Shown here piece by piece: positions 11,371 to 52,263 of a stretch of 52,402 nucleotides of DNA. A program made the translations under genes and the position numbers. Source of the DNA: an uncultured Oscillospiraceae bacterium (GTDB taxonomy: Bacteria > Bacillota > Clostridia > Oscillospirales > Oscillospiraceae); contig CANQNS010000015.1 in NCBI GenBank assembly GCA_947625285.1, positions 1 to 52,402 of the forward strand. The letters run 5' to 3'. Position 1 is the stretch's first letter. Each line of letters starts with the position of its first letter. The notes under the pieces are model-generated. The model ran no database searches. It saw only the letters and a list, made by a program, of their open reading frames with translations, and was not told the origin of the DNA.

Positions 11371-11550
11371 AAGCCTCGCAGAGTTTGCGCCCGCAGGCGC
11401 AAATAAAGTTGGATATGATTTCCGGGGACATGCGCCTCGGAAATCATTCTTTACGGCCCGCAAACGTGAACGCCCCCACCCGATGGATGGGGGCGCTTTG
11501 CGCTGCGGCGGGCCGCAGCCTTCTCGTTTGAATGCGATGCATTCAAACGA
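11371..11550 (+). ncRNA. structured intergenic element, copy A (candidate RNA family)
   Basis: First of three related copies. Helices seen: P1 TTTGCGCC/GGCGCAAA (11384-11391/11396-11403); P2 ATGATTTCCG/CGGAAATCAT (11415-11424/11438-11447) extended by GGG/CCT to a loop ACATGCG; P3 GCAAA/TTTGC (11460-11464/11497-11501), internal loop CGTGAA, capped by CGCCCCCA/TGGGGGCG (11471-11478/11488-11495); P4 GCTGCGG/CCGCAGC with loop CGGG (11502-11519); P5 12-bp terminal hairpin with loop GAT (11524-11550). Bases 11371-11477 are identical to copy B. It lies between the convergent DUF1002 and serpin genes, and P5 overlaps the serpin stop codon. Function is unknown; bidirectional terminator, 3'-UTR element or ncRNA are all possible. 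Confidence 0.75.
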
Positions 11551-12805
11551 CTGTGATCGCTCCAATGAATAGCGGTACGCCGTGGGCGCAGTCGATGAGC
11601 ATATAGATGAAGGGCCTGTCCAGATGGACCTGCTCCATGGGCCCCATCATGGACGCCTCCCGGATCTCCACGGCGGTGGCGGCCCCGGCCTGGGTGCCCT
11701 TTTCATCCACCTGGATAAAGGTCTTGTGCAGCACCTGGTCCACGTAAAGGCTCCCGGGCGCGGCCTCCGCCAGCCGGGAGAAGTCCGCCCGGCCGCTGTC
11801 AAAGGCGTCCGTGACGCCCATGGCCCGCAGGGCCTCGTTCAGCGCCGCGCCGTACTGGGCGGTGAATTTGGGGATGGCCGCGTCCACCGGCACGTCCTCC
11901 CGGACCGAGGCCAGGATGTCCCGCACCCGCTCCCCGGTGAGGGAGGCGGCGTAATCCGCCAGGGCCGTTCCCTGATCCGGCAGCAGGGCCGCGAAGGCGT
12001 AATTGCGGTCCTTATAATACTTCAAAAAGCCCCTGGCGTTTTCATCCTGTAAAAAGGCCCCCTCCTGGGAGAACATCATCTCCGCGTCCCGGGCCTGGCC
12101 GTCCTGGGTGGTGAAGGTCCCGGCCCGGACCTGGTCCTCGCTGTAGATATCCTCCCACTCCCCGTCAAAGGCCAGGGCGTTGACAAGCGTCATGACCGCG
12201 CCGGGAGAGAGCTGGTCCACGATCTTGTCCACGCAGCCGCCGGTGTTGTCCTTCACCCAGGCGTTGATCTCGTCGGCGGTGGTATCGTCATAGGGCGCGG
12301 AGCGGACCGCCGCGCCGTAGTAGTCGGCGTTGGCCTGCAAAAATTCCTGCCGGACGGTCAGGCCCGCGCCGGTGTTGAACCAGATGCCGTTGGCAAGCTC
12401 CGTCCGGCCTCCGTCCTCCGCCGGCAGCGCGTCCCGGTAGGCTAGCAGCGCGGCGTTCAGCTCGTCCATGGGCAGGCCGAAGGCCGTTTCCAACTGCGCC
12501 AGGGTCTCCCCGTCCGTGCCATTGGCGGTCATAGCCAGGGCCGACATCACCGACAGCGGCGACACCAGCGTGTTGGCCGCGCCGTCGAAGCATTCCCGGA
12601 ACAGCGCGACGCCAAAATCCGTCACCGCGCCGATCTCCTCCCCCACAGTCGCGCCGCCGCCGGACACCTGGGCGGACACGCCCTCCATCAGATCCCCGGT
12701 CCGGGGCTGCTCCACGGTGGGAGGCGGCTCCGTGGCCGCCGGGCTCCCGGCCCCGCAGCCGGACAGCAGCGCCAGCAGCAGGCACATGGCAAGGATGCGT
12801 TTCAT
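11543..12805 (-). CDS. lipoprotein serpin (serine protease inhibitor)
   Basis: This 420-residue serpin has a lipoprotein signal (LLLALLSGC, lipidated Cys at about 17), so it would sit on the cell surface. The serpin fold is supported by NTLVSPLSVMSALAMTANG, FNTGAGLTV, the region around ELANGIWF, LVNALAFDGEW, the FTAQYG/MGVTDAF segments and the C-terminal RPFIYMLIDCAHGVPLFIGAI. The hinge EKGTQAGAATAVEI carries the small residues needed for loop insertion, so it is likely inhibitory. The reactive loop (EASMMGPMEQ) suggests Ala or Met at or near P1; its length makes P1 uncertain. A target such as a host or microbial protease in the gut is inferred. The start at 12805 follows AGGAGGG. Confidence 0.92.
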   Translation of the reverse strand: MKRILAMCLLLALLSGCGAGSPAATEPPPTVEQPRTGDLMEGVSAQVSGGGATVGEEIGAVTDFGVALFRECFDGAANTLVSPLSVMSALAMTANGTDGETLAQLETAFGLPMDELNAALLAYRDALPAEDGGRTELANGIWFNTGAGLTVRQEFLQANADYYGAAVRSAPYDDTTADEINAWVKDNTGGCVDKIVDQLSPGAVMTLVNALAFDGEWEDIYSEDQVRAGTFTTQDGQARDAEMMFSQEGAFLQDENARGFLKYYKDRNYAFAALLPDQGTALADYAASLTGERVRDILASVREDVPVDAAIPKFTAQYGAALNEALRAMGVTDAFDSGRADFSRLAEAAPGSLYVDQVLHKTFIQVDEKGTQAGAATAVEIREASMMGPMEQVHLDRPFIYMLIDCAHGVPLFIGAITVV

Positions 12806-12857
12806 CCCGATCCCTCCTTTTTCCTTATTCTACCCCATATGCCCGCAGAATTGCAAC

Positions 12858-12890
12858 AAAACGCCCGGAACGGTCCGTTCCGGGCGTTTT
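12858..12890 (-). terminator. palindromic intrinsic terminator
   Basis: A near-perfect palindrome (AAAACGCCCGGAACGG with CCGTTCCGGGCGTTTT) with U-runs on both strands lies 11 nt after the small lipoprotein gene and before the serpin gene. It should end the upstream minus-strand transcript. Confidence 0.75.
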
Positions 12891-12901
12891 GCTGCTCTCT
12901 C

Positions 12902-13363
12902 TCACTGGATCGTCAGCTCCACGCTGCCGGTGAAGTGGTCGAATTCCAAGTTGAAGTAGTTGCTGCCGGGGGCCAGATAGGCGGTCTCGGTGAACGTGCC
13001 CTCCCCGTCGGCCAGGACCACAGGCTCCTCCGCCCCGCAGTTCCAGACCAGCTTCGCCCCGCCGCCGCCTTCGATGGCGGCCGTCACGGTCACGTGTTCG
13101 TTCTCCCGCCGCTGGAGCATGGTGCCCCCAAAAGGGCACTCCTCCCCGGTGAAGTCCTCATACTGGGCCGAATAGGTCCCGGTATACTTGTCCACGCCGA
13201 ATTTCCGCTCCCCCTTCAGGGTCAGGCCGCTGTCCAGGCCCACGTTCCCCGCCGCGGCCACCAACCCGCCGTATATGTCCAGCACCTGGTCCTTGCCGCA
13301 GCCCGGCAGCAGCGTCCCCGCCAGCAGCAGGACCGCGAACACAAAAGCCGTTATCTTTGCCAT
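12902..13363 (-). CDS. small lipoprotein of unknown function
   Basis: The product has 153 residues with a lipobox-like LLLAGTLLPGC (lipidated Cys at about 22). The mature part is beta-rich, with VTVTAAIEGGGGAKLVWNC, TFTETAYLAPGSNYFNLEF and a terminal GSVELTIQ, suggesting a small beta-sandwich on the cell surface. No enzyme motif is seen. The gene follows the Bce-type permease gene after 13 nt on the same strand, with a ribosome site GAAAGGAGG, so it is probably the last gene of that operon. A role with the Bce-type transporter (for example sensing or binding an antimicrobial peptide) is only contextual inference. Confidence 0.6.
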   Translation of the reverse strand: MAKITAFVFAVLLLAGTLLPGCGKDQVLDIYGGLVAAAGNVGLDSGLTLKGERKFGVDKYTGTYSAQYEDFTGEECPFGGTMLQRRENEHVTVTAAIEGGGGAKLVWNCGAEEPVVLADGEGTFTETAYLAPGSNYFNLEFDHFTGSVELTIQ

Positions 13364-13376
13364 ACCGCGCCTCCTT

Positions 13377-15401
13377 TCACATACTCACCAGCCGGTAATA
13401 GGTCCGGGCTGTGAGGACATACACCACGGCGTACAGCGCGGCAAAGACCCCAAAGGAGCCCAGCACGCACCACAGGTAAAACCCGCTGCTCATCAGGTTA
13501 AATAGCGCCATCACCCGGTTGATGATGGGGAACGCGAAGCCCGTGTGCAGCCCCGCCGTCACCAGAGGCAGGAAGAACACGATCAGCACCTGGGCCTGGA
13601 TGGTCCGCTTCACCTCCAGCCGGCTCATGCCCACCTTTTGCATGATCTGGAACCGCTCCCTATCGTCCCGGCCCTCGCTCATCTGCTTGTAATAGATGAT
13701 GAGGATGGCCGCCATGGTGAACAGCAGCCCCAAAAAGACGCCCAGGAAGAAAAGGCTGCCGTACAGGCTCACGAAATCCTGCCGCTCCCAGGCCCGGCAC
13801 TCGTAGGTGCCCTCCAGGTCCGAGCCTTCATCCTCCAGCGCCTGGTTCCAGGCAGCCCGGACGGCCAGCCGGGCGTCCAGGGCCGTTTCCTCGTCGTGGC
13901 CGGCCACGTCGAAGCCGTAAAACCGCTGCAAGGTATAGAGCCCATCCACCCGGTACTGCTCGGATGACCTGACGTCCTCCGAGGCAATGGCGGCGGCCAG
14001 GTCCGTCAGGGCCTCCCTGTCCGGCACCACGATGTAGCAGGTACTTGTCAGGTTGGCGGTCATCAGCCCGTACCGGACCATATCCTCCACCTGCGCCTTC
14101 ACGGTATAGGTCTTGCCCAGAAGTTCCAGGGTGTCCGATCCGTATTTCATCCGATCCACTTTCAGCAGTATCTCGTCCGGGCCCAGGTCATAGTCCTGGC
14201 CGGTACAGCGGTTATAATCGTCCAGGTCCGTCACCAGCACGTCGCACAGCGTGCTCTCCGTGTTGAAGGTATAATCCGTGGTGACATCCAGCCCGCCGGG
14301 CCGGCTGTAGGCGGCGAAGTTTACATAACTATACTCCGCCTCATTCACCGGCACGATGCCCGCCTCCGCCACGGCCTTTTTCGTCAGCGCGACGGTGGCC
14401 TCGTCGCTGTGGGAGATGTTCATGTCGTAGGGGTACCGCTCAAAAAGGGCTCTGTCCATGCCCAGCATCAGGCAGCTTGTGCCGGATATCATCACCAGCA
14501 CCATGGTGGAGAGGATGCAGATGTTGGCAAGGCCCACGGCGTTTTGCTTCATTCGGTACATCATGCCGGACACGGCGGTGAAGTGGCGGGTCTTATAATA
14601 GTACCGCTTATTTCGCTTCAGGAGCTTCAAAAGGGCGATGCTGCCGGCGGTGAACAGCAGGTATGTGCCCACGATCACCAGCACCACCGCCACGAAGAAC
14701 AGGAACATGGCCTGGATCACGTCGGTGGTGGTGACGGCGATATAATATCCCGCCCCCAGGCACACCAGCCCCAACAGGGCCATGAGCCACTTGGCCCGGG
14801 GCTCCCGCTCCCCCGCGTGCTCGGCCTGCAAAAGCTCCACCGGCCGGGCCACGTACACCTGCCGGATGCTGTAAAGGAAGATCAGCAGAAAGATGCCCCC
14901 AAAGAGGGCCGCCGTGACGCCGATCACCGCGGCCAGCAGCCGGGGCCCGGCAAAAAAGCCCATGGGCGGCGCGATGCCCAGTATCTTCGCCGCCACCAAA
15001 AGCAGCAGCTTTGCCAGCGCCACCCCCAGCGCAAGGCCCAGCGCAAGGCTTATCAGCGCGGTGTACGCCGTCTCATAGCCGATGACCCGGGCCAGATGCT
15101 TCTTTTCCAGCCCCAGCACGTTGAAAAGGCCGAACTCCCGCTTGCGCCGCTTGATGAGGAAGCTGTTGGTGTAAAAAATGAAGATCACCGCGAACAGCCC
15201 CACCACGATCACCCCGTAGCGGATCACCACCTGCACGGTGGTGGCCCCGGTCATGGACTGCAGGCTGGGGCTCACCGCCAGGGCCAGGATGATGAAGAAC
15301 ATACACACCGTCAGCACGCAGGCCAGGATGAAGGGCCCGTAGGACCGGGCGTTTTTCCGCAGGTTCCGCCGGGCTAGCCGGGAGAGGAATTTACTGTTCA
15401 T
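13377..15401 (-). CDS. BceB-type ABC transporter permease (FtsX family)
   Basis: The 674-residue membrane protein starts FLSRLARRNLRKNARSYGPF, as in BceB-like permeases. It has about ten predicted membrane helices: one near the N-terminus, pairs around residues 60-250, a large extracellular domain (about 310-540), and the last three near the C-terminus. This layout is typical of transporters that remove bacitracin or lantibiotics from lipid II-cycle targets and also serve as the sensor for the partner kinase. The gene overlaps the ATPase gene by 11 nt. The peptide recognised cannot be told from sequence. Confidence 0.9.
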   Translation of the reverse strand: MNSKFLSRLARRNLRKNARSYGPFILACVLTVCMFFIILALAVSPSLQSMTGATTVQVVIRYGVIVVGLFAVIFIFYTNSFLIKRRKREFGLFNVLGLEKKHLARVIGYETAYTALISLALGLALGVALAKLLLLVAAKILGIAPPMGFFAGPRLLAAVIGVTAALFGGIFLLIFLYSIRQVYVARPVELLQAEHAGEREPRAKWLMALLGLVCLGAGYYIAVTTTDVIQAMFLFFVAVVLVIVGTYLLFTAGSIALLKLLKRNKRYYYKTRHFTAVSGMMYRMKQNAVGLANICILSTMVLVMISGTSCLMLGMDRALFERYPYDMNISHSDEATVALTKKAVAEAGIVPVNEAEYSYVNFAAYSRPGGLDVTTDYTFNTESTLCDVLVTDLDDYNRCTGQDYDLGPDEILLKVDRMKYGSDTLELLGKTYTVKAQVEDMVRYGLMTANLTSTCYIVVPDREALTDLAAAIASEDVRSSEQYRVDGLYTLQRFYGFDVAGHDEETALDARLAVRAAWNQALEDEGSDLEGTYECRAWERQDFVSLYGSLFFLGVFLGLLFTMAAILIIYYKQMSEGRDDRERFQIMQKVGMSRLEVKRTIQAQVLIVFFLPLVTAGLHTGFAFPIINRVMALFNLMSSGFYLWCVLGSFGVFAALYAVVYVLTARTYYRLVSM

Positions 15402-16161
15402 GGCTCTCCCCTCCCGTAGCCAGCAGGGTCAGTGTGTCCGCGATCTTCTGGTACATCTGCTCGTTGGCGGCCTCGCCCCGGTATATCTGGTGGAACAGCT
15501 CCCCGTCCTTGATGAAGATCACCCGCCCGGCGTGGCTGGCGGCTTTGGTGGAGTGGGTCACCATCAAAATGGTCTGGCCCTCCCGGTTGAGCTGGGAGAA
15601 AAGGTCCATGAGCCCGTCGGAGGACTTGGAGTCCAACGCCCCGGTGGGCTCGTCCGCCAGCAGCAGCCTGGGCCCCGTGATCACCGCCCGGGCCACGGCG
15701 GCCCGCTGCTTCTGGCCCCCGGAGACCTCATAGGGGTACTTAGTCAGTATGTCCGTGATGCCCATCTTTTGGGCGATGGGCTGGAGCCTCTGGCTCATCT
15801 CCACATAGCCCTTGCCCGCCAGCACCAGGGGCAGAAAGATGTTGTCCCGGAGATTGAAGGTGTCCAGCAGGTTGAAGTCCTGGAACACGAAGCCCAGGCT
15901 GTCCCGCCGGAAGGCGGCCAGCTCGTTCTCCTGGATCTCGGACAGGTCCCGGCCCTCCAGCAGCACCCGGCCGCTGGTGGGCTTGTCGAAGGCCGCCAGC
16001 ATATTCAAAAGCGTGGTCTTGCCGGAGCCGGACTCGCCCATGATGGCTACGTATTCCCCCTGCTCCACGGAAAAGGACACATTGGACAGAGCTTTCACCT
16101 GGTTGGCCCCGAAGCGGCCGGTATAGATCTTTCCCAGGTTTTCTACTTCCAGGATCGTCAT
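15391..16161 (-). CDS. BceA-type ABC transporter ATPase
   Basis: The 256-residue ATPase carries Walker A (GESGSGKTTLLN), Q-loop (FVFQDFNLLDTF), signature (YEVSGGQKQRAAVARA), Walker B (LLLADEPTGALD) and switch His (VTHSTKAASHA). The N-terminus ILEVENLGKIYTGRFGANQVKAL fits the BceA/MacB-like antimicrobial peptide group. The start at 16161 follows AAAGGAGGG; the upstream ATGs lack such sites. It is translated just before the permease and is separated by about 100 nt from the kinase gene, a gap holding a likely regulated promoter. Confidence 0.93.
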   Translation of the reverse strand: MTILEVENLGKIYTGRFGANQVKALSNVSFSVEQGEYVAIMGESGSGKTTLLNMLAAFDKPTSGRVLLEGRDLSEIQENELAAFRRDSLGFVFQDFNLLDTFNLRDNIFLPLVLAGKGYVEMSQRLQPIAQKMGITDILTKYPYEVSGGQKQRAAVARAVITGPRLLLADEPTGALDSKSSDGLMDLFSQLNREGQTILMVTHSTKAASHAGRVIFIKDGELFHQIYRGEAANEQMYQKIADTLTLLATGGESHEQ

Positions 16162-16186
16162 AGTCGTTCCCTCCTTTTGCGCCCTT

Positions 16187-16255
16187 ATCATAACAAATAC
16201 CCCCGGAGGCCGAAATCGAATCAAGTGACAATTCGGCCCCCGGAGGTGACAAATT
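16187..16255 (-). promoter_or_regulatory. candidate response-regulator-controlled promoter of the Bce-type transporter genes
   Basis: On the minus strand a TATGAT -10 box (16192-16187) has no good -35 hexamer. Upstream lie two direct repeats, AATTTGTCAC (16255-16246) and AATTGTCAC (16233-16225), 21 nt apart, i.e. two helical turns on one face. Weak -35 plus upstream repeats suggests activation by the adjacent response regulator. Confidence 0.4.
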
Positions 16256-16263
16256 CGTAAGGT

Positions 16264-17268
16264 CTACTCCACTTCCAGCCTGTCCCGGCGCATATCCAGA
16301 TAAAAGACGCTGCCCTTCCCCGGCTCCGACTCCGCCCACAGCCGGTGGCGGAGCTTTTCCGCCGCCTGCCGGCACAAGTACAGCCCCAGGCCCGTGGCGG
16401 CCTTGTCGGCGCGGCCGTTGTAGCCGGTGAAGCCCTTTTCAAAGATCCGGGGCAGGTCCGACGCGGATATGCCGATGCCCGTGTCCGCCACGGAGAGCGT
16501 CTTCTCCGCCGAGACGGAAACGGTCACGCCTCCGGCGGGGGTGTACTTCACCGCGTTGTCCAGAAGCTGCTCGATGATGAAGGACAGCCACTTCTCGTCC
16601 GACAGCACCTGCTGGTCCGTGCCCTCGTAGCGCAGATAGAGCTTGCGTCGGACGAACTGGGGGGCGTACTTGTGGACCGCCTGGCGGATCACCCCGTCCA
16701 GGGCCACGGTCTCGATCCGCAGATCGCCGGCCCCCTCTCCCAGCCGCAGATAGGTCAAAGCCATCTGGGCGTACTGGCTCACCCGGAAAAGCTCCGCCTC
16801 CAGGTCCCGGTGCTCCGGGGTGTCCTCCGCCTGGAGCGTCAGGCGCATGACCGCGATGGGGGTCTTGATCTGGTGGACCCAGGCGGTGAACCAGTCCAGA
16901 TTCTCCCGCCGGGCCCGGTCCGCCTCGGTGGACAGCGCGTCGTAGGCCGCCTTCATCCGCCGGACCATCTCCCGAAGATCCGCCTCCGCCGGGGTCTCCG
17001 CCGCGGGCAGGCTCTCCGCCGGCAGGATCAGCAGATTTTCCAGCGCGGCCAGCCGGCGCATATGCCCCCGCCGGAAGCGGACATACCCCGCCGCCAGCAG
17101 TACGGCCCCCGCCAGGGCGCACAGCCCCGCCCCGTACAGGGCCGGCTCCGCCGGCACGTCATATAAGACCAGCACCGCCGCGTAAATGGCCGCGAACAGG
17201 GCGAACACGCCCATGGCCCGGCCCTTTGACCGGATATAGGCCCAAAAAAGGCCCCGCTCCCTCTTCAT
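16264..17268 (-). CDS. BceS-type intramembrane-sensing histidine kinase
   Basis: The 334-residue kinase has two membrane helices near the N-terminus (about 18-36 and 42-62) with almost no extracellular loop, so it cannot bind a ligand outside by itself; such kinases are driven by the Bce permease. The phosphoacceptor motif is VHQIKTPIAVMRL, followed by the N box (EQLLDNAVKYTP), G1 (VADTGIGIS), F (IFEKGFTG) and G2 (ATGLGLYLC) boxes. It lies 4 nt after the response regulator gene. Confidence 0.92.
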   Translation of the reverse strand: MKRERGLFWAYIRSKGRAMGVFALFAAIYAAVLVLYDVPAEPALYGAGLCALAGAVLLAAGYVRFRRGHMRRLAALENLLILPAESLPAAETPAEADLREMVRRMKAAYDALSTEADRARRENLDWFTAWVHQIKTPIAVMRLTLQAEDTPEHRDLEAELFRVSQYAQMALTYLRLGEGAGDLRIETVALDGVIRQAVHKYAPQFVRRKLYLRYEGTDQQVLSDEKWLSFIIEQLLDNAVKYTPAGGVTVSVSAEKTLSVADTGIGISASDLPRIFEKGFTGYNGRADKAATGLGLYLCRQAAEKLRHRLWAESEPGKGSVFYLDMRRDRLEVE

Positions 17269-17272
17269 CCGC

Positions 17273-17944: not shown

Positions 17945-17953
17945 CCCGCCGCC

Positions 17954-19273: not shown

Positions 19274-19286
19274 GGCTCTCCCTCCC

Positions 19287-20753: not shown

Positions 20754-20779
20754 AACGCCGCTCCTCCTTTCCTCACATA

Positions 20780-20814
20780 GCAATCGGGACGGCCTGAAAA
20801 GCCGTCCCTATTGC
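20780..20814 (-). terminator. intrinsic-type hairpin after khpB
   Basis: GCAAT-C-GGGACGGC pairs with GCCGTCCC-T-ATTGC with a 7-nt loop, 11 nt past the khpB stop. It separates the rpmH-khpB operon from the MBOAT gene. The U-run is short. Confidence 0.6.
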
Positions 20815-21676: not shown

Positions 21677-21680
21677 ATCG

Positions 21681-27887: not shown

Positions 27888-28260
27888 GTCTCAATTGGAA
27901 ATCGTTTTTCCAAAGCAGGATGCGACCGCCGGCCTCCCCGGAGGACGGCCAAGGCCACACGGACAGCCGGGTCGAATGCCGATCGCCGCCTTGCGCGGCT
28001 GGCAGCGGAAGCTGCCTTATTGATTGAGTTGGGAGCGCTCGCCGCGCCCAGGGCTCAAGTTTTATAAGTTGGTTACTTTATAACCGGTGCCGGGCGGCAC
28101 AGAAACTTGTAAAATGGTCAGTAAGAGTAGGGCAAGGCATTTTGCTTTCAGAAAACTCTCAGCTCCATTGGGACGGACCGCCGTCATCCCCCCGGGCGGA
28201 CGGCCGGGACGGGACCTATCGCAAGTGGAACGCGCCTCTGGCACGTTCCACTTGTTTTTT
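27888..28260 (+). ncRNA. unidentified ~370-nt structured RNA or leader upstream of potA
   Basis: This ~370-nt non-coding stretch has its own consensus promoter and ends in a strong terminator just before potA. Local helices seen include TTGGAAA/TTTCCAA (from 27895), CCTCC/GGAGG inside GCCG/CGGC (27928-27949), GCCGC/GCGGC (27985-27999), GGCAGC-GGAA-GCTGCC (28001-28016) and CAAGTTT/AAACTTG enclosing a GTGCC/GGCAC hairpin (about 28055-28109). It does not show RNase P, SRP, T-box, TPP, c-di-GMP, SAM or FMN signatures that I could recognise. It may be a stable ncRNA or a riboswitch-type attenuator for the polyamine transporter. Confidence 0.5.
28222..28260 (+). terminator. intrinsic terminator directly before potA
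   Basis: CAAGTGGAACG (28222-28232) pairs with CGTTCCACTTG (28244-28254), an 11-bp stem, followed by TTTTTT (28255-28260). It lies 15 nt before the potA ATG, so any potA transcription from upstream must read through it. Confidence 0.88.
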
Positions 28261-32252: not shown

Positions 32253-32431
32253 TCGATCAAATGCAAGCATTTGATCGAAAAGGCTGCGGCCCGCTGCAAC
32301 GCAAAGCGCCCCCGCCCGATGGGCGGGGGCGTTCACGTTTGCGGGCCGTAAAGAATGATTTCCGAGGCGCATGTCCCCGGAAATCATATCCAACTTTATT
32401 TGCGCCTGCGGGCGCAAACTCTGCGAGGCTT
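32253..32431 (-). ncRNA. structured intergenic element, copy B (candidate RNA family)
   Basis: This is copy B, on the minus strand. P5 is TCGATCAAATGC/GCATTTGATCGA (32253-32264/32267-32278); the P3 cap CGCCCCCGCCC/GGGCGGGGGCG is a perfect 11-bp stem (32307-32317/32321-32331); P2 is at 32355-32364/32378-32387 and P1 at 32399-32406/32411-32418. It is identical to copy A from its 5' end to the base of the P3 cap (about 107 nt), then differs mostly in helix bases that still pair. It lies between the convergent potCD and HtrA genes. Its 5' end is 19 nt after the HtrA stop, and its terminal hairpin is one base after the potCD stop. Confidence 0.75.
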
Positions 32432-32448: not shown

Positions 32449-33687
32449 TCACCCTATATGCTCCTGGCCGAATTGGCGCAGGAAATCCTCCAGAGAGCTG
32501 CCGAAGTCATCCCAATCGTCCCGGTCCTGGCGGCCGCCCTCCTCATCGGGCCTGGCGTCCGCGTTGGACCCGGTCTCCGGCTCCGGCGTGGGCGTGGGCA
32601 GGGCGTCCTGGGTCTTTTCCCCCACCGTCACGGTGACCTCCGTCTCCCGGCCCTGCCGGTAAACGGTGAGCGTCAGCTTGCTGCCCGGCTCCGCCGCGCC
32701 TACGATGTCGGTGAGGTCCCGCCGGCCTGTGACGGGCTGGCCGTCCACGGCGGTTACGATGTCGTTCTCCTGCAGGCCGGCCTCCGCGGCGGGACTGTCC
32801 TCCTCCACGGAGTGGATGGCCGCGCCCTCGGGCAGACCGTAGCCCAGGGCCTCGGAGCTCACGTCGGAGATCGTCACGCCGATATAGGGCTTGGCGATGT
32901 AGCCCTTCTCGATGATGCTCTGCACGATGCCGGCCACCTGGCTGATGGGGATGGCGAAGCCGATGTTGTCTATGGACGCGCCCATGCCGCTGCTGGAGTA
33001 CTTGGCGTTGGTGATGCCGATGACCTCGCCGTACATATTGAACAGCGCGCCGCCGGAGTTGCCGGAGTTGATGGCGCAGTCGGTCTGGATCAGGTCCATA
33101 GTCACGCCGCCGGACACGGTGATCTCCCGGTCCAGCGCGCTGACCAGGCCGCCGGTCAGAGAGAAGGTCAGCTCGCCCAGAGGGTTGCCGATGGCTACCA
33201 CCTCGTCGCCCACCCGCAGGGCGGCGGAGTCGCCCACCGTCACGGGGACCAGGTCCTCGGCGTCCACCTTCAGCACGGCGATGTCGTTGCTCTCGTCATA
33301 GCCCACCAGCTCCCCGTCGTAGGTGGTTCCGTCGTACAGGGCCACGGTGATGGTCTCGGCCTTCTCCACCACATGGTAGTTAGTCAGGATGTACCCGTCG
33401 TCGGTGACGATGAAGCCGGAGCCGGCGGCGGCGGACTTGGTCTCATAACCCCAGTAGTTGGTGGTGGTGACGGCGGTGGTGATGCCCACGGTGGAGTTCA
33501 CGTTCTGTTCGTATATATCCGCCGCGCTCATCTGCTGGCGGCTGTCGGCGGCGGCCAGGGTCAGGGCCCCGCCGTTACCGCTTTTGGCCCGTGTGGTGCC
33601 GCCGAAGGTACCGGCCAGCATAGCCAGGCACAGCGCCAGGACCAGTATCCTCCCGGCCAGCTTCTTCCCGTTTTTATGTTCAAACAT
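32449..33687 (-). CDS. HtrA/DegP-like trypsin family protease with PDZ domain
   Basis: The 412-residue protease is membrane-anchored by an N-terminal helix (about 10-30, AGRILVLALCLAMLAGTFGG). The catalytic triad is His in LTNYHVV, Asp in SNDIAVLKV and Ser in NSGNSGGALF. One PDZ domain follows (about 270-360; KPYIGVTISDVSSEALGYGL). The C-terminus is a Pro/Asp/Arg-rich tail (TPTPEPETGSNADARPDEE). HtrA proteases degrade or refold damaged exported proteins. The start at 33687 follows GAAAGGAAG; the ORF could extend 32 codons upstream but without a ribosome site. Element copy B follows the stop on its strand. Confidence 0.94.
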   Translation of the reverse strand: MFEHKNGKKLAGRILVLALCLAMLAGTFGGTTRAKSGNGGALTLAAADSRQQMSAADIYEQNVNSTVGITTAVTTTNYWGYETKSAAAGSGFIVTDDGYILTNYHVVEKAETITVALYDGTTYDGELVGYDESNDIAVLKVDAEDLVPVTVGDSAALRVGDEVVAIGNPLGELTFSLTGGLVSALDREITVSGGVTMDLIQTDCAINSGNSGGALFNMYGEVIGITNAKYSSSGMGASIDNIGFAIPISQVAGIVQSIIEKGYIAKPYIGVTISDVSSEALGYGLPEGAAIHSVEEDSPAAEAGLQENDIVTAVDGQPVTGRRDLTDIVGAAEPGSKLTLTVYRQGRETEVTVTVGEKTQDALPTPTPEPETGSNADARPDEEGGRQDRDDWDDFGSSLEDFLRQFGQEHIG

Positions 33688-33821
33688 GATAACGCGCTTC
33701 CTTTCGGTTTTTGGGTGTTCCCCTTTTTGATGGTCCCATTGTACGCGCCCCGCCGGGAAAGATGTTAACGATAGATTTAACATTTTTTGAAAGAAATATG
33801 AACGCCCGTTTTTCCGTCATC

Positions 33822-44657: not shown

Positions 44658-44658
44658 G

Positions 44659-46889: not shown

Positions 46890-46890
46890 C

Positions 46891-47166
46891 ATGGATCTGA
46901 ACGAGCTGCGCGCCCGTATCGACGCGGTGGACCGGGAGCTGGTGACGCTGCTGGAAAAGCGCATGGACATCTCCGCCGCCATCGGGGACTATAAGCGGGC
47001 CCACGGCCTGGCCGTGCTGGACCCGGGCCGGGAGGCCCAAAAGACGGAGGCCATCCGCACCCTGTGCCGCCCGGAGACAGCGGACCTGATCGCCGGGCTC
47101 TACGGCCCCATCATGGCCGCCAGCCGGGCCTATCAGCACAGACGCGGGGAGGATCGGCATGAATAA
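46891..47166 (+). CDS. chorismate mutase, AroQ class
   Basis: The 91-residue all-helical protein is a monofunctional AroQ-class chorismate mutase: DLNELRARIDAVDRELVTLL (with the catalytic Arg), EKRMDISAAIGDYKRAHG (with Lys) and a last helix with EAIRTLC. It turns chorismate to prephenate, the substrate of tyrA upstream. It begins 1 nt after aroC and overlaps the aroE-aroK fusion by 8 nt. There is no prephenate dehydratase (pheA) in the window. Confidence 0.92.
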   Translation: MDLNELRARIDAVDRELVTLLEKRMDISAAIGDYKRAHGLAVLDPGREAQKTEAIRTLCRPETADLIAGLYGPIMAASRAYQHRRGEDRHE

Positions 47167-48385
47167 TAAAAGATTTGGCCTGCTGGGGCGAAAGCTGGGC
47201 CACAGCTGGTCGCCCCGGATACACGCCATGCTGGCGGACTATGACTATCAGCTCTACCAGGTGGAGCCGGAGGACCTGGACGCCTTTTTGCGGACCACGG
47301 ACCTGGACGGCATGAACGTGACCATCCCCTACAAAAAGGACGTGGTCCCCTACTGCGCGGAGCTGTCCGACGCCGCCCGGCGCATCGGCAGCGTGAACAC
47401 CCTGGTCCGCACCCCCTCCGGCTGGCGGGGGGACAACACCGACTACGCCGGCTTCCGTTACATCGTGGAACGCTCCGGCATCGATATCCGGGGCAAAAAG
47501 ACCCTGGTCTTTGGCACCGGCGGGGCCTCTCTGGCCGTCAAGGCCGCCCTGGAGGACCTGGGCGCGGACCCCATCGTGTCCATTTCCCGCACAGGGGAAA
47601 ATAATTATGTAAACCTTTCAAAGCACCACGACGCCAAGATACTGGTGAATACCACCCCCCTGGGCATGTTCCCGGACACCGGCGCGGCACCGGCGGCGGT
47701 GGGGGACTTTCCCCGATGCGAGGGGGTGTTCGACGTGGTGTATAATCCCCAGCGGACGGCGTTTCTGCTGGAGGCGGAGCGGCTGGGCGTCCCCCATGCC
47801 GGTGGGCTGGGGATGCTGGTGGCTCAGGCCTGCCGCAGCGGTGAGCAGTTCGCGGGCCGGCCGGTGCCGGACAGCAAAATAGAAAAAATTATGTCAACTC
47901 TCTCCCGGCAGCTGAGCAACATCGTCCTGATCGGCATGCCGGGCTGCGGCAAGTCCGCGGTGGGCCGGGAGCTGGCCCACAAGCTGGGCCGGCCCCTGCT
48001 GGACGCGGACAAGGAGATCGAAAAGGAGGCCGGCATGACGATCCCGGCCATCTTCGAGGCCGAGGGGGAGGCGGGCTTCCGCCGGCGAGAGACAGCGGTG
48101 CTGGCCCGGCTGGGCAAGGGTTCCGGGGCCATCCTCTCCACCGGCGGCGGCTGCGTCACCGTGGCGGACAACTACCCCCTTCTGCACCAGAACGGCGTCA
48201 TCCTCTGGCTGCAGCGGGACCTTGACAAGCTGCCCACCGCCGGCCGTCCCCTCTCCCAGAGGAGTTCCGCCGGAACCCTTTACGCCCGGCGGAAAGAAAA
48301 ATACGCCGCGTTCGCGGACATCGCCGTGGACAACAACGGTCCTCTGATGGAGACCGTATCGCGGATCATGGAGGCGTTTCAATGA
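47159..48385 (+). CDS. aroE/aroK: fused shikimate dehydrogenase and shikimate kinase (AroE-AroK)
   Basis: The 408-residue protein contains an AroE domain (about 1-240; GRKLGHSWSPRIHAML, NVTIPYKKDVV with catalytic Lys, NTDYAGFRY with Asp, TLVFGTGGASLAV for NADP) and a shikimate kinase domain (about 245-408; IGMPGCGKSAVGRELA P-loop, DADKEIEKEAG, FRRRETAVLARL, LSTGGGCV, and RRKEKYAAFADIAV). The two steps (dehydroshikimate to shikimate, then to shikimate-3-phosphate) are consecutive, so channelling is possible. A short linker (RPVPDSKIEKIMSTLSR) joins them; an ATG inside it (47891) could allow a separate kinase. It overlaps aroQ by 4 nt. Confidence 0.94.
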   Translation: MNNKRFGLLGRKLGHSWSPRIHAMLADYDYQLYQVEPEDLDAFLRTTDLDGMNVTIPYKKDVVPYCAELSDAARRIGSVNTLVRTPSGWRGDNTDYAGFRYIVERSGIDIRGKKTLVFGTGGASLAVKAALEDLGADPIVSISRTGENNYVNLSKHHDAKILVNTTPLGMFPDTGAAPAAVGDFPRCEGVFDVVYNPQRTAFLLEAERLGVPHAGGLGMLVAQACRSGEQFAGRPVPDSKIEKIMSTLSRQLSNIVLIGMPGCGKSAVGRELAHKLGRPLLDADKEIEKEAGMTIPAIFEAEGEAGFRRRETAVLARLGKGSGAILSTGGGCVTVADNYPLLHQNGVILWLQRDLDKLPTAGRPLSQRSSAGTLYARRKEKYAAFADIAVDNNGPLMETVSRIMEAFQ

Positions 48386-48819
48386 AGATCCTTGTCATCA
48401 ACGGGCCCAACCTGAATATGCTGGGCATCCGGGAGCCGGGCATCTACGGCTCGGAGAGCTATGCCGATCTGACGGCGTTCATCAAGAGGGTCTGCGCGGA
48501 CCGGGGCGTGGAGGCCGAACTGTTCCAGTCCAACCACGAGGGGGCCATCGTGGACCGCATCCAGGCGGCCTACGGGGAGGCGGACGGCATCGTCATCAAC
48601 CCGGCCGCCTACACCCACACCAGCGTGGCCATCCTGGACGCGCTGAAGGCGGTGTCCATCCCGGCGGTGGAGGTCCATCTCAGCGACGTGTCCGCCCGGG
48701 AGCCTTTCCGGCAGGTCTCCTATGCCGGCATGGCCTGTGAAAAGACCTACGCCGGCCACGGCTTCGACGGCTACCGCATGGCGGTCGAGTATCTGGTCGA
48801 ACACCACGGAAAGAAATGA
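48382..48819 (+). CDS. aroQ: 3-dehydroquinate dehydratase, type II
   Basis: The 145-residue enzyme dehydrates 3-dehydroquinate. Type II motifs: VINGPNLNMLGIREPGIYG (catalytic Tyr region), FQSNHEGAIVDRI, IVINPAAYTHTSVAILDAL and VEVHLSDVSAREPFRQ. It is the last gene of the aromatic operon; every step from DAHP to chorismate is now encoded within the eight genes. A terminator follows 3 nt after the stop. Confidence 0.97.
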   Translation: MKILVINGPNLNMLGIREPGIYGSESYADLTAFIKRVCADRGVEAELFQSNHEGAIVDRIQAAYGEADGIVINPAAYTHTSVAILDALKAVSIPAVEVHLSDVSAREPFRQVSYAGMACEKTYAGHGFDGYRMAVEYLVEHHGKK

Positions 48820-48822
48820 CAA

Positions 48823-48850
48823 AAGGCGCGCCGCTCACGCGGCGCGCCTT
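48823..48850. terminator. terminator of the aromatic operon (bidirectional)
   Basis: AAGGCGCGCCGC (48823-48834) pairs with GCGGCGCGCCTT (48839-48850), a 12-bp stem with loop TCAC, between convergent aroQ and thiT. Only short U-runs flank it. Confidence 0.75.
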
Positions 48851-48894
48851 ATGACCGTGCCGGAAGAGAGGTACCGGCAGGTCGCGTATGTATC

Positions 48895-49467
48895 TCAGGC
48901 CAGGTCCTCGCCCCGGAAATACTTGCCCAGGGGCTTGTAGATGAGCAGGGCCACGATCTCCGTCAGGACCAGCTCTCCGGCCATGTACCAGCCGTTGTAC
49001 ACCAGGGAATAGACATAGCTGTTCATGCCGTAATCGTTGGGCCACATGGCGTCCCAGATCCACACGCCCGTGATGAAGTGGCACACGAAGCGGATGGCGA
49101 AGGTGACGGCGATGCCCACGGCCAGGGCGGCCATGTGGTTTTTCATCTTCCCGTCGAAGATGCCGGCCGCGCCGATGACGGTGTAGGCGATGATGTAGTC
49201 CAGCAGCGCGATAGCCACGGCCATGCCGAAGCTGGTGGCGTAGCGGACGTTATCCAGGCCCAGCACCATCTGCAGAAGGCTGTACACGAACGCGCTGACG
49301 ATGCCCCACTTCCAGCCGTAACGGAAGCTGAGGAGGACCAGCGGCAGCATGCTGCACAGCGTCAGGCCGCCCCCCATGGGCATATCGAACTTTACCAGGC
49401 TCAATACCGTTCCCACGGCGATGAGCATGGCGCTTTCCACCAGCTTGCGAGTTTGGATCTTTTTCAT
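48895..49467 (-). CDS. thiT: ECF transporter thiamine-binding subunit ThiT
   Basis: The 190-residue membrane protein is an S component of an energy-coupling factor transporter for thiamine. It has six helices, KLVESAMLIAVGTVLSLVKF at the start, LPLVLLSFRYGWKWGIVSAFVY, and the aromatic-rich segment WIWDAMWPNDYGMNSYVYSLVYNG (seen in pieces) that lines the thiamine site. A TPP riboswitch with its own promoter and terminator precedes it, confirming thiamine control. The ECF energising module (EcfA1A2T) is elsewhere. Start 49467 follows GAAAGGAGT. Confidence 0.95.
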   Translation of the reverse strand: MKKIQTRKLVESAMLIAVGTVLSLVKFDMPMGGGLTLCSMLPLVLLSFRYGWKWGIVSAFVYSLLQMVLGLDNVRYATSFGMAVAIALLDYIIAYTVIGAAGIFDGKMKNHMAALAVGIAVTFAIRFVCHFITGVWIWDAMWPNDYGMNSYVYSLVYNGWYMAGELVLTEIVALLIYKPLGKYFRGEDLA

Positions 49468-49494
49468 TTTGACTCCTTTCTTTTTGCGAAAACG

Positions 49495-49529
49495 GGACCG
49501 CCCTCGGCATGATGATCCGACGGCGGTCC
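49495..49529 (-). terminator. TPP riboswitch expression-platform terminator
   Basis: On the minus strand GGACCGCC (49529-49522) pairs with GGCGGTCC (49502-49495), with an inner CGG/CCG pairing, then CGTTTTC. It lies between the aptamer and the thiT ribosome site, so TPP binding would favour termination. Confidence 0.7.
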
Positions 49530-49553
49530 TTCGCGCAGCTCTCGCTGCGATTT

Positions 49554-49637
49554 TTCCTACGCCGGTATTATCCGGATCAGGTTCCAGGGCCCGGTGCGTC
49601 TACGCACCATCTCAGCCGGGTCACACCCAGCACCCCT
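49554..49637 (-). promoter_or_regulatory. TPP (thiamin pyrophosphate) riboswitch
   Basis: On the minus strand the aptamer reads GGGGTGCTGGGTGTGACCC, then GGCTGAGA and, after a variable GGTGCGTAGACGCACC hairpin, CCCTGGAACCTGATCCGG and ATAATACCGGCGTAGGAA. The CUGAGA and ACCUGAUC...AAUACCGGCGUAGG core are the conserved TPP-binding parts. It lies upstream of thiT and downstream of a consensus promoter. Confidence 0.97.
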
Positions 49638-49653
49638 TTTCGGTTGTATGCTC

Positions 49654-49682
49654 ATTATAGTCCCGGTATGTCCGCTTGTCAA
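49654..49682 (-). promoter_or_regulatory. consensus promoter of TPP riboswitch-thiT
   Basis: TTGACA (49682-49677), 17-nt spacer and TATAAT (49659-49654), all consensus. The -35 box overlaps the queH stop codon (49679-49681). Confidence 0.87.
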
Positions 49683-50302
49683 TCGTCCGCTGCGGTTTTC
49701 TCCAAATCCTCCGGCCATCCGCAGCCGCAGTACTCCTGCCGGTAAAGGCCGTACTGTTTGGAAAGCTGTATGGAGCGCAGATATCCGTCCCGCTTTTTGA
49801 AGTCTGACGGCAGCCACTTCACGCCGTACTCCTCCGCCAGCTCCTCCCCGATGCGGTTGATGCGCTCCGCGTCCTTGTGGGGGCTCACGGTCAGGGTGGT
49901 GCCGAAAAAGTCAAAGCCCCACTCCGCCGCGGTGCGGGCGGTCTCGGCAAGCCGCAGCCGGAAGCAGGCCGTGCATCTGGCTCCCCCCTCCGGCTCGCTC
50001 TCCAGGCCCCGGGCCGCCTGTACAAAGTCCTCCCCCCGCCAGCTTGGCTCCAGCAGCGCGGGCGGGTGGTCCATGGGCATGGCGGACAAAAGCCGCTTCA
50101 GGGTGTCCAGCCGCTTTTCATACTCCGCCTCCGGCCGGATGTTGGGGTTATAGTAAAATACCGTCACGTCGAAGTACTTCGTCAGGTACTCCAGCACATA
50201 GCTGGAGCAGGGCCCGCAGCAGCTTTGCAGCAGCAGACCGGGCCGCCCCGCCAGGCCGCCCGTCACCGCGTCCAGTTCCTTTTGGTAGTTCCGCTTTTCC
50301 AT
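49679..50302 (-). CDS. queH: epoxyqueuosine reductase QueH
   Basis: The 207-residue protein reduces epoxyqueuosine to queuosine in tRNA, as the non-cobalamin alternative to QueG. Signature motifs: LLQSCCGPCSSYVLEYL (Cys pair near 28), FYYNPNIRPEAEYEKRL, GGARCTACFRLRL (Cys pair near 110), GTTLTVSPHKD and QEYCGCGW. They supply cysteines for a 4Fe-4S cluster and metal. The start at 50302 follows GAGG; the long ORF upstream in this frame lies opposite the dCMP deaminase gene. Possible TTACTA/TATTAT promoter boxes on the minus strand lie just upstream. Confidence 0.93.
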   Translation of the reverse strand: MEKRNYQKELDAVTGGLAGRPGLLLQSCCGPCSSYVLEYLTKYFDVTVFYYNPNIRPEAEYEKRLDTLKRLLSAMPMDHPPALLEPSWRGEDFVQAARGLESEPEGGARCTACFRLRLAETARTAAEWGFDFFGTTLTVSPHKDAERINRIGEELAEEYGVKWLPSDFKKRDGYLRSIQLSKQYGLYRQEYCGCGWPEDLEKTAADD

Positions 50303-50392
50303 GGCCTCATTATAATAGCACAGTTTTAACCGAATAGTAACCATTTTTTCACGAAAACCGCCTATAATAAGCAAAACGAGGGGGAAAACGGC

Positions 50393-50869
50393 ATGGAACG
50401 AAAGAGCAAGCTGGATTATTACCTGGATATCGCGGACGCGGCCCGGGAGCGGTCCACCTGCCTGCGGCGGACCTACGGGGCCATCATCGTGAAAAACGAC
50501 GAGATCCTTGCCACGGGTTACAACGGCGCGCCCCGGGGCCGGTGCAACTGCGTGGATATGGGCGTGTGCCACCGGGAGGAGCTGCAGATCCCCTCCGGCG
50601 AGCGGTATGAGCTGTGCCGCTCCGTCCACGCCGAGGCCAACGCCATCATCTCCGCCGCCCGGCGGGATATGATCGGCGCCACCATGTATCTGGTGGGCCG
50701 GGACGCCAAGACCGGCGAGTACCTTTCCGACACCACCTCCTGCTCCATGTGCCGGCGGCTCATCATCAACGCCGGCATCGAAAAGGTCGTGGCCCGCCTG
50801 GGCGAGAACGATATCCGCGTCACCGATGTGAACCAATGGATATTCCAGGACGATACGGTCGTGAGCTGA
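50393..50869 (+). CDS. deoxycytidylate (dCMP) deaminase, ComEB-like
   Basis: The 158-residue enzyme likely makes dUMP from dCMP for thymidylate synthesis. Zinc-binding motifs are HAEANAI and SCSMCRRLI (in place of PCxxC); a second cluster in RCNCVDMGVCHR (about 42-53) is typical of the dCMP deaminase/ComEB family with an extra zinc. The start follows GAGGGGGAAA. A TATAAT (50363-50368) lies upstream with only a poor -35. The 3' end overlaps the next gene by 34 nt. Confidence 0.93.
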   Translation: MERKSKLDYYLDIADAARERSTCLRRTYGAIIVKNDEILATGYNGAPRGRCNCVDMGVCHREELQIPSGERYELCRSVHAEANAIISAARRDMIGATMYLVGRDAKTGEYLSDTTSCSMCRRLIINAGIEKVVARLGENDIRVTDVNQWIFQDDTVVS

Positions 50870-52071
50870 CAGAGCGTTTCCCGGCGCGGCGGCGGATCCT
50901 GTTTGCCCTGCTGGCGCTCATGGCCCTGGGCTATTTCCTCCTGAGCGACCTGATGGACGGCAGTCTCTGGGCCCATGAGCCCTGGGACAGCTATTCCCTG
51001 CAGACCTATAACTGGCTCCGGGGCCGGACCTATATCCCTGACGGGGCGGACTATGATTTTTTGGAGCTGGCTATCTACCGGGGCCGGTACTATGTGTCCT
51101 TTCCCCCGCTGCCGTCGGTGGTCCTGATCCCCCTGGTGGCGGTCTTTGGGCTGTATACCCCCGACAACCTGCTCATGGCCGTCTATGGCCTGATCGCGGC
51201 GGACCTGGCCTATCGGATCATGCTCAAAGCGGGCAGGACCCCCCTGGTCAGCGCGTTTTGGGCGTTGGTGTGCGTGTGGGGCTGCAATATGCTGTGGCTG
51301 ACTACCAACGCCGGCGTCTGGTTCCAGGCCCAGGCGTTGAATTTCGTCCTGTGTCTGGCGGCGGCGCTGTGCGCGCAGTACGGCCGCAAGGCCCTTTCCA
51401 CCACGTTCCTGGCCCTGGCGGTGGGCTGCCGGCCTTTGAGCGCGGTGTTCCTGCCGGTGTTCGCCCTGACCTTCGCCTGGAACGAGCGGGCGGAGCGCGG
51501 CGGCTTTCTCAAAAGCTGCCTGGCCCAGTGGCGGTGCCTGATCGGTCCGATCCTGATCGGGGCCTGCTATATGGTCTATAACTACGTGCGGTTCGATGAT
51601 CCCCTGGAGTTCGGCCACAACTATCTGCCGGAATTCGTCGCGGCGGAGCACGGACAGTTCCACTGGAGCTACCTGGCCCGCAACCTGCGGCAGATGTTCC
51701 TGGCGCCGGTGCTGTTCTGGGACGGCCGGCTCCAGTTCCCCATCTATCAGGGGTTCATGTTCTATGTGGCGAACCCCCTTTTCATCCTCTACTTCCTCTG
51801 CCTGCTCCGGCACGTGACGCGCCGGGAGGCGGGTTTGGAGGACGCGCTGACGGCCGCCGGCATCGCTTTGGTGCTGGCGCTGACCTGTTTGCACCGGACC
51901 CTGGGGGCCTGGCAGTTCGGCTCCCGGTATTCCTGCGACACGATCCCCTTCGCGTATCTGTACCTGGCCCGCCGGGGACGGCAGCGGCCCGCCCTGTGGG
52001 AGATAGTCTTGGGCTGCGCCGCCGTGGCCTTCAACGCCTACGGGGCATTGTACATGTACTTTTACGGATAA
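50836..52071 (+). CDS. polytopic membrane protein, probable GT-C glycosyltransferase
   Basis: The 411-residue protein has about nine helices. Segments near the start (EPWDSYSLQTYNWLRGRTYI, YRGRYYVSFPPLPSVVL) and in the middle (VYNYVRFDDPLEFGHNYLPE) resemble GT-C enzymes such as ArnT-like mannosyl or arabinosyl transferases, with an acidic pair (Asp in WDSY) in the first outer loop. The start is uncertain: ATG 50836 overlaps the deaminase gene and has no clear ribosome site, while ATG 50919 would remove part of helix 1. It is the third gene of this GT-like type in the window. Element copy C follows its stop by 9 nt. Confidence 0.6.
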   Translation: MDIPGRYGRELTERFPARRRILFALLALMALGYFLLSDLMDGSLWAHEPWDSYSLQTYNWLRGRTYIPDGADYDFLELAIYRGRYYVSFPPLPSVVLIPLVAVFGLYTPDNLLMAVYGLIAADLAYRIMLKAGRTPLVSAFWALVCVWGCNMLWLTTNAGVWFQAQALNFVLCLAAALCAQYGRKALSTTFLALAVGCRPLSAVFLPVFALTFAWNERAERGGFLKSCLAQWRCLIGPILIGACYMVYNYVRFDDPLEFGHNYLPEFVAAEHGQFHWSYLARNLRQMFLAPVLFWDGRLQFPIYQGFMFYVANPLFILYFLCLLRHVTRREAGLEDALTAAGIALVLALTCLHRTLGAWQFGSRYSCDTIPFAYLYLARRGRQRPALWEIVLGCAAVAFNAYGALYMYFYG

Positions 52072-52079
52072 AATAGTTT

Positions 52080-52263
52080 CGCCTCGCTTAAGTTCGCGCC
52101 CGGAGGCGCGAATAAAGTGAGATCATTTTTCCCGGCGACATGTGCATCGGGAAAAATTCTTCTCAGCCCGCAAACGTGAACGCCCCCGTCCATCTGGACG
52201 GGGGCGCTTTGCGCTGCAGCGGGCTGCAGCTTATGCATTGAAAAGGCTTTGCCTTTTCAATGC
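52080..52263 (+). ncRNA. structured intergenic element, copy C (candidate RNA family)
   Basis: This third copy is more divergent but keeps the architecture. P1 is TTCGCGCC/GGCGCGAA (52093-52100/52105-52112); P2 ATTTTTCCCG/CGGGAAAAAT (52125-52134/52148-52157) with loop ACATGTG; P3 GCAAA/TTTGC with the invariant CGTGAA and an 11-bp cap (52181-52191/52196-52206); P4 GCTGCAG/CTGCAGC with loop CGGG (52213-52230); P5 GCATTGAAAAGGC/GCCTTTTCAATGC (52235-52263), unlike P5 of A or B. Changes relative to A are mostly paired. It lies between the convergent GT-C-like gene and rpsR, ending 1 nt from the rpsR stop. Confidence 0.75.

What the first reader, a model, noticed from the sequence alone, without database searches (positions are those of the whole stretch)
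11371..52263. New structured RNA/repeat family with covariation (three copies)
A ~180-nt element occurs at 11371-11550 (+), 32253-32431 (-) and 52080-52263 (+). A and B are identical for about 107 nt and C is divergent. Compensatory changes (A to C) keep pairs: P1 T-A to C-G; three pairs in P2; P3 cap pairs (A-T to G-C; C.A in A, C-G in B, T-A in C); P4 G-C to A-T. P5 is almost unrelated in sequence in the three copies but always a 12-13 bp hairpin. Invariant parts are AATAAAGT, loop ACATGYG, internal loop CGTGAA and loop CGGG. I do not recognise it as a described Rfam family.
Basis: partly seen in the sequence, partly recalled or inferred. Interest (0 to 1): 0.88.

Follow-up and report, generated by a model that had tools for sequence, protein, structure and literature searches.

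The report
Repeated hairpin spacer at gene ends
A repeated stretch of about 180 DNA letters that folds into a fixed chain of hairpins is scattered through many gut bacteria of one group, where it often fills the whole gap behind a gene's stop signal; it is real and matched no named family here, but what it does is not yet proven.

Summary
All three copies exist; the genome has 20 exact copies of the 5' 13-mer of A and B, reversed control 0. A covariance model from 14 copies finds the family in 41 of 80 genomes searched: 34 of 35 of the genus, 4 of 14 in other genera of the family, 3 of 31 elsewhere in the order. In 114 further matches 48 of 49 pairs change on both sides. No Rfam family reached its threshold on the element.

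"New RNA" is not shown. In the genus its stop codon lies at or inside that end in 88 of 91. In relatives, junctions at copies A and B hold plain hairpins or inverted copies; another site is empty in three.

I read it as a REP/MITE-like, probably mobile DNA hairpin element that becomes the spacer between genes, able to supply a stop codon, a hairpin behind it and sometimes a Shine-Dalgarno. Polarity weakens outside the genus, and T-run hairpins are commoner there, so a terminator role stays open. No mobilising protein was found.

The parts
   Evidence: CM hit 213.2 bits
32251..32433 (-). copy B, whole element
   Evidence: CM hit 213.2 bits
52077..52265 (+). copy C, whole element
   Evidence: CM hit 187.1 bits
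11373..11385 (+). conserved 5' tail GCCTCGCAGAGTT of copy A; on the other strand AACTCTGCGAGGC with a Shine-Dalgarno-like GAGG
   Evidence: exact in 128 of 142 copies found by CM rather than by the motif
11383..11404 (+). P1 hairpin of copy A
11415..11447 (+). P2 hairpin of copy A; loop ACATGCG at 11428-11434
11454..11515 (+). P3 stem of copy A (11454-11461 with 11508-11515)
11471..11495 (+). P4 hypervariable hairpin slot of copy A
   Evidence: 55 different slot fillings in 82 parsed genus copies; 11 of 93 not parsed
11525..11549 (+). P5 hairpin of copy A; contains the stop codon (11543-11545) of the gene on the other strand
11543..12805 (-). serpin-like gene whose 3' end faces P5 of copy A
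   Evidence: PF00079 E 3e-81
10342..11364 (+). DUF1002 gene convergent with the serpin-like gene at copy A (start codon uncertain)
   Evidence: PF06207
30278..32251 (+). transporter gene (permease plus binding-protein domains) whose stop abuts P5 of copy B
32449..33783 (-). trypsin/PDZ protease gene on the other side of copy B
50614..52071 (+). gene ending 5 nt before copy C; no Pfam match

Best explanation
This is a dispersed, non-coding DNA repeat of the REP/BIME/MITE type, probably moved in trans by an unidentified protein. One strand folds into a chain: a conserved 13-nt tail, hairpins P1 and P2 with a conserved 7-nt loop, a stem P3 holding an exchangeable hairpin slot P4, and a terminal hairpin P5. 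Copies settle in gaps between genes, mostly with P5 towards a gene's stop codon. In the host genus a copy usually is the whole spacer: its end (AGTCGTTTGA on the coding strand) can complete or supply the stop codon, the mRNA then carries a hairpin directly behind the stop, and in some tandem genes the far end (CTCTGCGAGGC) can serve as the next gene's Shine-Dalgarno. Shown: structure, covariation, copy number, position, polarity in the genus, shared descent at many sites, gain or replacement at some junctions. Inferred: movement by a protein, and an effect on translation or mRNA decay of the upstream gene like that reported for E. coli REPs lying close to stop codons.
For: Copy number: the 13-mer occurs 20 times in the own genome, 93 in G054, 73 in G077, 0 in G019, G041 and G048; reversed control 0 in all 11 genomes but G054 (1). 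Covariation: 31 of 49 pairs with double changes in 14 own copies; 48 of 49 in 114 other matches, 1347 double-change cells against 372 shuffled and 115-218 slid (alignment fitted to the model). Position: P5 side is a gene 3' end in 183, a 5' end in 17, uncalled in 16 of 216; genus 91 of 92 called. Stop codon from -19 to +5 nt of the P5 end in 88 of 91, overlapping in 58. SD: an open ATG lies 3-11 nt after the element's own GAGG in 16 of 84 copies with a gene start on that side (genus 15 of 43), against 4-10 of 84 (1-7 of 43) in the next four 9-nt bins and 7 of 104 copies with a gene end there. Replacement. Inheritance: one site kept with both flanks in 5 species.
Against: No mobilising enzyme found: Y1 transposase has no match in 7 of 10 element-bearing genomes tested. 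No target duplication or exact boundary could be read; flanks had changed at the two sites examined. Polarity is not universal: in annotated Vescimonas fastidiosa stretches the P5 side is a 3' end in 5, a 5' end in 4 and unclear in 1 of 10 copies, 3 of them between divergent genes (my reading); in viral contigs 3' end in 6, 5' end in 2, uncalled in 2 of 10 distinct copies. Stop abutment is absent in family f7 (0 of 25 within 15 nt) and partial in other genomes (22 of 57 at +5 or closer). The G.T against A.C strand test is not decisive: outside the one position P1+P2 give 30 against 30, P5 60 against 30, and ordinary terminators 68 against 49. T-run hairpins lie in 59 of 123 copies outside the genus, which suits a terminator.
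Confidence: 0.5

Rival explanations
1. A structured non-coding RNA (trans-acting, or an antisense RNA made from the reader's strand) whose fold is under RNA-level selection.
Against: About 20 to 90 copies in several genomes beside unrelated genes; the strand is antisense to the P5-side gene in 183 of 200 called copies; slot P4 and P5 change freely. No transcript evidence either way.
Confidence: 0.15
2. A family of bidirectional transcription terminators or insulators kept between genes, above all convergent ones.
For: 88 of 216 copies lie between convergent genes; G010 and G009 have a plain hairpin at the junction of copy A, and 9 of 10 element-free loci behind the protease gene of copy B have a T-run terminator. 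Some P4 or P5 fillings are T-run terminators. T-run hairpins within 8 nt of the element: 24 of 93 genus copies, 10 of 33 in f7, 49 of 90 elsewhere; within 70 nt of convergent copies: 15 of 44, 12 of 13 and 26 of 31.
Against: In the genus most convergent copies show no T-run terminator (15 of 44 do, against 16 of 30 element-free loci behind two genes), a weak contrast; 83 copies lie between tandem genes; one copy sits inside a phage tail gene cluster, where termination would silence later genes.
Confidence: 0.25
3. A passive relic: old repeats whose hairpins stay perfect only because replication template switching copies one arm onto the other, with no function and no current movement.
For: Almost all changes are double: 107 double-change cells against 6 one-sided ones; P4 and P5 are often unrelated between copies yet good hairpins.
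Against: The mostly unpaired 13-mer is exact in 128 of 142 CM-found copies and the loop classes recur across families; a site occupied in one species is empty in three relatives.
Confidence: 0.2

Closest known systems
REP / BIME elements of enterobacteria
   Same: Dispersed intergenic palindromes near gene 3' ends; some lie within 15 nt of stop codons and are reported to stall ribosomes and lower translation (passages of PMC12306157)
   Different: REPs are much shorter single hairpins (recalled); in E. coli 446 of 4072 lie within 15 nt of a stop, here 88 of 91 lie at +5 or closer in the genus; no Y1 transposase match in 7 of 10 carriers tested; exchangeable hairpin slot, 13-nt tail and loop motif are unlike REP as recalled
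BOX, RUP, ERIC and other MITE-like bacterial repeats
   Same: Non-coding, about 100-200 nt, modular, intergenic, foldable (recalled)
   Different: No terminal inverted repeats seen here; strong polarity to the upstream stop codon in the genus; their sequences were not compared
Group IIC introns
   Same: Recalled as inserting behind terminator hairpins with fixed orientation
   Different: P5 is mostly a recurring element-own hairpin; no reverse transcriptase or intron domain was searched for beyond Rfam (no hit on the element)
Candidate structured RNAs of human microbiomes (PMC8040213)
   Same: Palindromic intergenic candidates from gut bacteria
   Different: Only passages of the main text were seen; the supplementary list could not be read, so an overlap cannot be excluded

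Membership tests
Rfam families (release 15) | score above gathering threshold | tested here: not met
   3 window hits, none on the element; 0 hits in 16 other loci; in the weak search the best row on an element is Xoo1 on copy C, minus strand, 28.8 bits against 70, E 0.15
REP/BIME | dispersed intergenic palindromes in many copies | tested here: met
REP/BIME | Y1 (RAYT/IS200-like) transposase in the carrier genome | tested here: not met
   0 matches in G000, G010, G014, G011, G039, G054, G077; one each in G017, G038, G045; genomes are incomplete to differing degrees
REP/BIME | short hairpin with 5' GTAG-type tetranucleotide (definition recalled) | tested here: not met
   left end is GCCTCGCAGAGTT in 128 of 142 CM-found copies
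MITE | terminal inverted repeats | tested here: not met
   ends AAGCCTCGCAGAG.. and ..CGACT are not inverted repeats by reading; the G009 mini-form is an exception
MITE | target-site duplication | tested here: inconclusive
   two sites with element-free relatives; flanks changed
mobile element | presence in one relative and absence in others at the same junction | tested here: met
structured RNA family | covariation above controls | tested here: met
   no phylogeny-aware test was run
structured RNA family | transcribed | not testable with these tools
   no RNA data held
intrinsic terminator | hairpin plus T-run | tested here: inconclusive
   in either direction within 8 nt of the element: 24 of 93 genus, 10 of 33 f7, 49 of 90 other copies

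The most novel reading that the evidence does not exclude
A new class of single-strand-folding mobile DNA whose insertion is aimed at stop codons: it lands at the end of a reading frame, rebuilds the stop from its own end in whichever frame it meets, and brings a Shine-Dalgarno for the next gene, so that it can enter even overlapping genes without breaking either. Its mobilising protein, reading the 13-nt tail and the P2 loop, is unknown.
Probability: 0.22. Interest if true: 0.85.

Novelty: new variant of a known kind. Interest (0 to 1): 0.62.

Why it matters
It is an abundant (93 copies of its 13-mer in one genome), strongly structured element of gut Oscillospirales that matched no Rfam family here. 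Its tie to stop codons and, in part, start sites suggests that it shapes gene ends on a genome-wide scale, and it gives a testable model of how a mobile element can live in very tight genomes. Named strains carry it (Flavonifractor sp. An10, Pseudoflavonifractor gallinarum DSM 107456, Vescimonas fastidiosa MM35), so transcript and reporter tests look possible.

Tried and rejected
Terminator replacement as the full explanation: in the genus T-run terminators lie in or within 70 nt of 15 of 44 convergent copies, against 16 of 30 element-free loci behind two genes; too weak a contrast either way. Outside the genus T-run hairpins are frequent, so this rival stays open; on recounting for this report I raised it from 0.20 to 0.25 and lowered the best explanation from 0.55 to 0.50.

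G.T versus A.C as proof of DNA-level selection: parity in P1/P2, but the control with ordinary terminators also lacks a strong G.T excess, so I do not use it as proof. An earlier count scored G.T favourably and is superseded.

RAYT/IS200-type mobilisation: no Y1 transposase match in 7 of 10 carriers tested. In-place inversion: the part's output that was shown (it was cut) holds two inverted pairs; the one read in full (E107/E127) has different subtypes, so independent insertion is likelier. Locus B of G000 and G010 (same P5, opposite orientation) remains open.

First gene-direction script was wrongly trained and gave nonsense; it was discarded and replaced.

Rows dropped: 229 model matches, 225 after removing duplicates, 216 after removing weak or antisense matches. 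Searches were given 198 loci, including 65 of the 120 named-genome loci. The 74 copies from pattern-chosen loci are left out of the 13-mer count because the pattern contains the 13-mer.

Literature. Of 11 papers holding the 13-mer, its complement or near variants, none is about these bacteria by title; the other searches show only lists of titles (20 of 265, 11 of 11, 8 of 4129, 4 of 4, 8 of 33), none of them about this repeat. PMC8040213 and PMC12306157 were seen only as passages, the others only as listings. Definitions of REP, MITE, BOX and group IIC introns are recalled.
Full report
What is there. Each folds far better than its shuffles (z -7.2 to -9.8). A BLAST search of the own genome with copy A gave 43 rows. 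The covariance model made from 14 copies lists 51 matches there, of which 16 reach 132 bits or more (one, on C10, is cut by another element) and many of the rest are antisense or partial. The exact 13-mer GCCTCGCAGAGTT occurs 20 times in the own genome, 15 in G009, 20 in G010, 18 in G014, 2 in G015, 0 in G019, 1 in G022, 0 in G041 and G048, 93 in G054 and 73 in G077; the reversed control gives 0 in all but G054 (1).

Structure. On 14 own copies 49 pairs give 95.4% paired cells, 31 pairs changed on both sides, covariation 0.437 against 0.158 in shuffles and at most 0.114 when the arms are slid. On 114 further matches, in an alignment fitted to the model, 48 of 49 pairs change on both sides, with 96.6% paired cells. 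P4 is a slot rather than a fixed hairpin: 82 parsed genus copies gave 55 different fillings (11 of 93 not parsed), nearly all self-complementary and many unrelated to each other, including terminator-like hairpins and, in two cases, a second repeat of about 100 nt. The loop is ACATGYG or GCRTGTA, so positions 1 and 7 exchange A/G for G/A; these classes cover 188 of 206 copies read. The 13-mer is exact in 128 of 142 copies found by the model.

Who has it. In 80 genomes searched with the model, the own one included, 41 had a match: 34 of 35 genomes of the genus (all but G019), 4 of 14 other genomes of the family and 3 of 31 of other families of the order, one of them weak. Two genomes of family f7 have 101 and 71 matches. 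Vescimonas fastidiosa has 23 places on one replicon and 1 on another. Two phage records match only about a fifth of copy A. Eleven viral contigs hold the pattern. Of two examined, one encodes a tail sheath and a tape-measure protein and the other tail-fibre and virion proteins; in the first the element starts directly behind a stop codon between those tail genes.

Where it sits. A codon model trained on the fetched DNA called the neighbours of 216 distinct copies. The P5 side faces a gene 3' end in 183, a 5' end in 17 and was uncalled in 16; the other side faces a 3' end in 109 and a 5' end in 89, uncalled in 18. Convergent 88, tandem with P5 at the upstream gene 83, the opposite tandem 14, divergent 1, the other 30 with a side uncalled. 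In the genus 91 of 92 called P5 sides are 3' ends. The stop codon of that gene lies between -19 and +5 nt of the element end in 88 of 91 genus copies, and in 58 it overlaps the element, which reads T|AG, TA|A, TG|A or, further in..TTTGA. On the other side, stops of convergent genes lie -5 to +16 nt from the element in 40 of 45. Where that side holds a gene start, an open ATG lies 3-11 nt behind the element's own GAGG in 16 of 84 copies, 15 of 43 in the genus; the next four 9-nt bins hold 4-10 of 84 and 1-7 of 43, and copies with a gene end there give 7 of 104. So in the genus the element usually is the whole spacer, and its end can act as a ribosome-binding site in some copies.

Limits of that pattern. 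In family f7 the stop is 16 to over 100 nt away (25 copies), other genomes are mixed (22 of 57 at +5 or closer). In annotated Vescimonas stretches 4 of 10 copies have P5 at a gene 5' end, 5 at a 3' end, 1 unclear, and 3 lie between divergent genes (my reading of the tables, which are incomplete). In the viral contigs 6 of 10 distinct copies have P5 at a 3' end, 2 at a 5' end, 2 uncalled.

Same junction, different fillings. Behind the serpin-like gene of copy A, 22 loci of relatives and self could be read: 2 carry the element, 20 do not. Three relatives keep the same convergent neighbour closely enough to compare: G010 and G009 have a plain hairpin, G010 with a P5-like scar, and G014 has the element the other way round. 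Behind the protease gene of copy B, 13 loci were read: G000 has the element, G010 has it inverted with an extra insert, G009 has a short palindrome made of two left ends followed by a T-run, and 10, mostly with other neighbours, have none; 9 of those 10 carry a T-run terminator by my scan, against 7 of the 20 at locus A. One G010 copy lies between two genes that overlap or abut (TAATG, TAAATG) in G000, G009 and G011, and in G033 the same slot holds another hairpin repeat. Other sites are conserved with flanks on both sides in the same orientation, one of them in five species. The picture is gain, loss and replacement in gene gaps over a background of vertical descent.

How it may work. Shown: structure, covariation, position, polarity in the genus, replacement. 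Inferred: a DNA strand folding into hairpins is recognised by a mobility protein, since the tail and loop are among the most conserved parts; the mRNA of the upstream gene then ends, or continues, with a hairpin directly behind the stop codon. E. coli REPs within 15 nt of a stop are reported to stall ribosomes and lower translation, and 446 of 4072 REPs lie so close (passages of PMC12306157). In the host genus nearly every copy does. I therefore think a REP-like effect on the upstream gene, plus a spacer role, is the likeliest consequence. A strong terminator is unlikely for the phage copy and for the tandem copies of the genus; for copies outside the genus, where T-run hairpins lie within 8 nt of the element in 59 of 123, it remains possible.

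Which strand. Ordinary terminators of the same DNA give 68 against 49, and 32 against 29 with an A-run, so the test cannot by itself decide between RNA and DNA.

Verdict. The family is real and, as far as the searches named here go, undescribed. The title 'structured RNA' goes beyond the evidence; 'structured, probably mobile DNA repeat that serves as gene spacer' fits better. The tie to stop codons in the genus is the surprising part.

Noticed in passing
G000 C28:20486-20563, C7:80249-80326, C10:63779-63948 (L018, L023, L044): Three element copies at contig ends are interrupted near the 5' foot of P2 by what looks like the end of one insertion sequence (..AAGTGCAACAGGG); its body was not found. 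It may target the hairpin as some IS target REPs.
   Followed up: partly
L045 (G000 C8:7836-8101); L066 142-409; L276 (G010): A second repeat of about 100 nt (like GAGAGGAGGAACCGTGAGCCATTCGAGTTTTGCCGC) is nested in the P3/P4 slot of several copies.
   Followed up: no
L402, L404 (G033 C3): Another hairpin repeat (GGCCCCCTCTGACGAGGGGGC .. CCTCCCTCGTCAGAGGGAGG) fills two gene gaps that hold the element in G010.
   Followed up: no
L020 (G000 C32:2147-2304): The first 24-26 nt of the element occur three times at 42-nt spacing, the third at the start of a full copy.
   Followed up: no
L277 (G009, locus B): A mini-form: two left ends as inverted repeat (GCCTCGCAGAGTTTGCGC TTCC GGGCGCAAACTCTGCGAGGC) followed by a T-run, REPIN-like and terminator-like.
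   Followed up: partly
window 27923-27982 (+): Rfam match to the Streptococcus sRNA SpF59 (61.8 bits, gathering 37.2) in this Oscillospirales genome, outside the host group of its name.
   Followed up: no
window 3093-3452 (-), 49536-49647 (-): tmRNA and a TPP riboswitch found by Rfam.
   Followed up: no
window 52264-52402 (-): The gene behind copy C reads like the C-terminus of ribosomal protein S18 (by eye, no call).
   Followed up: no
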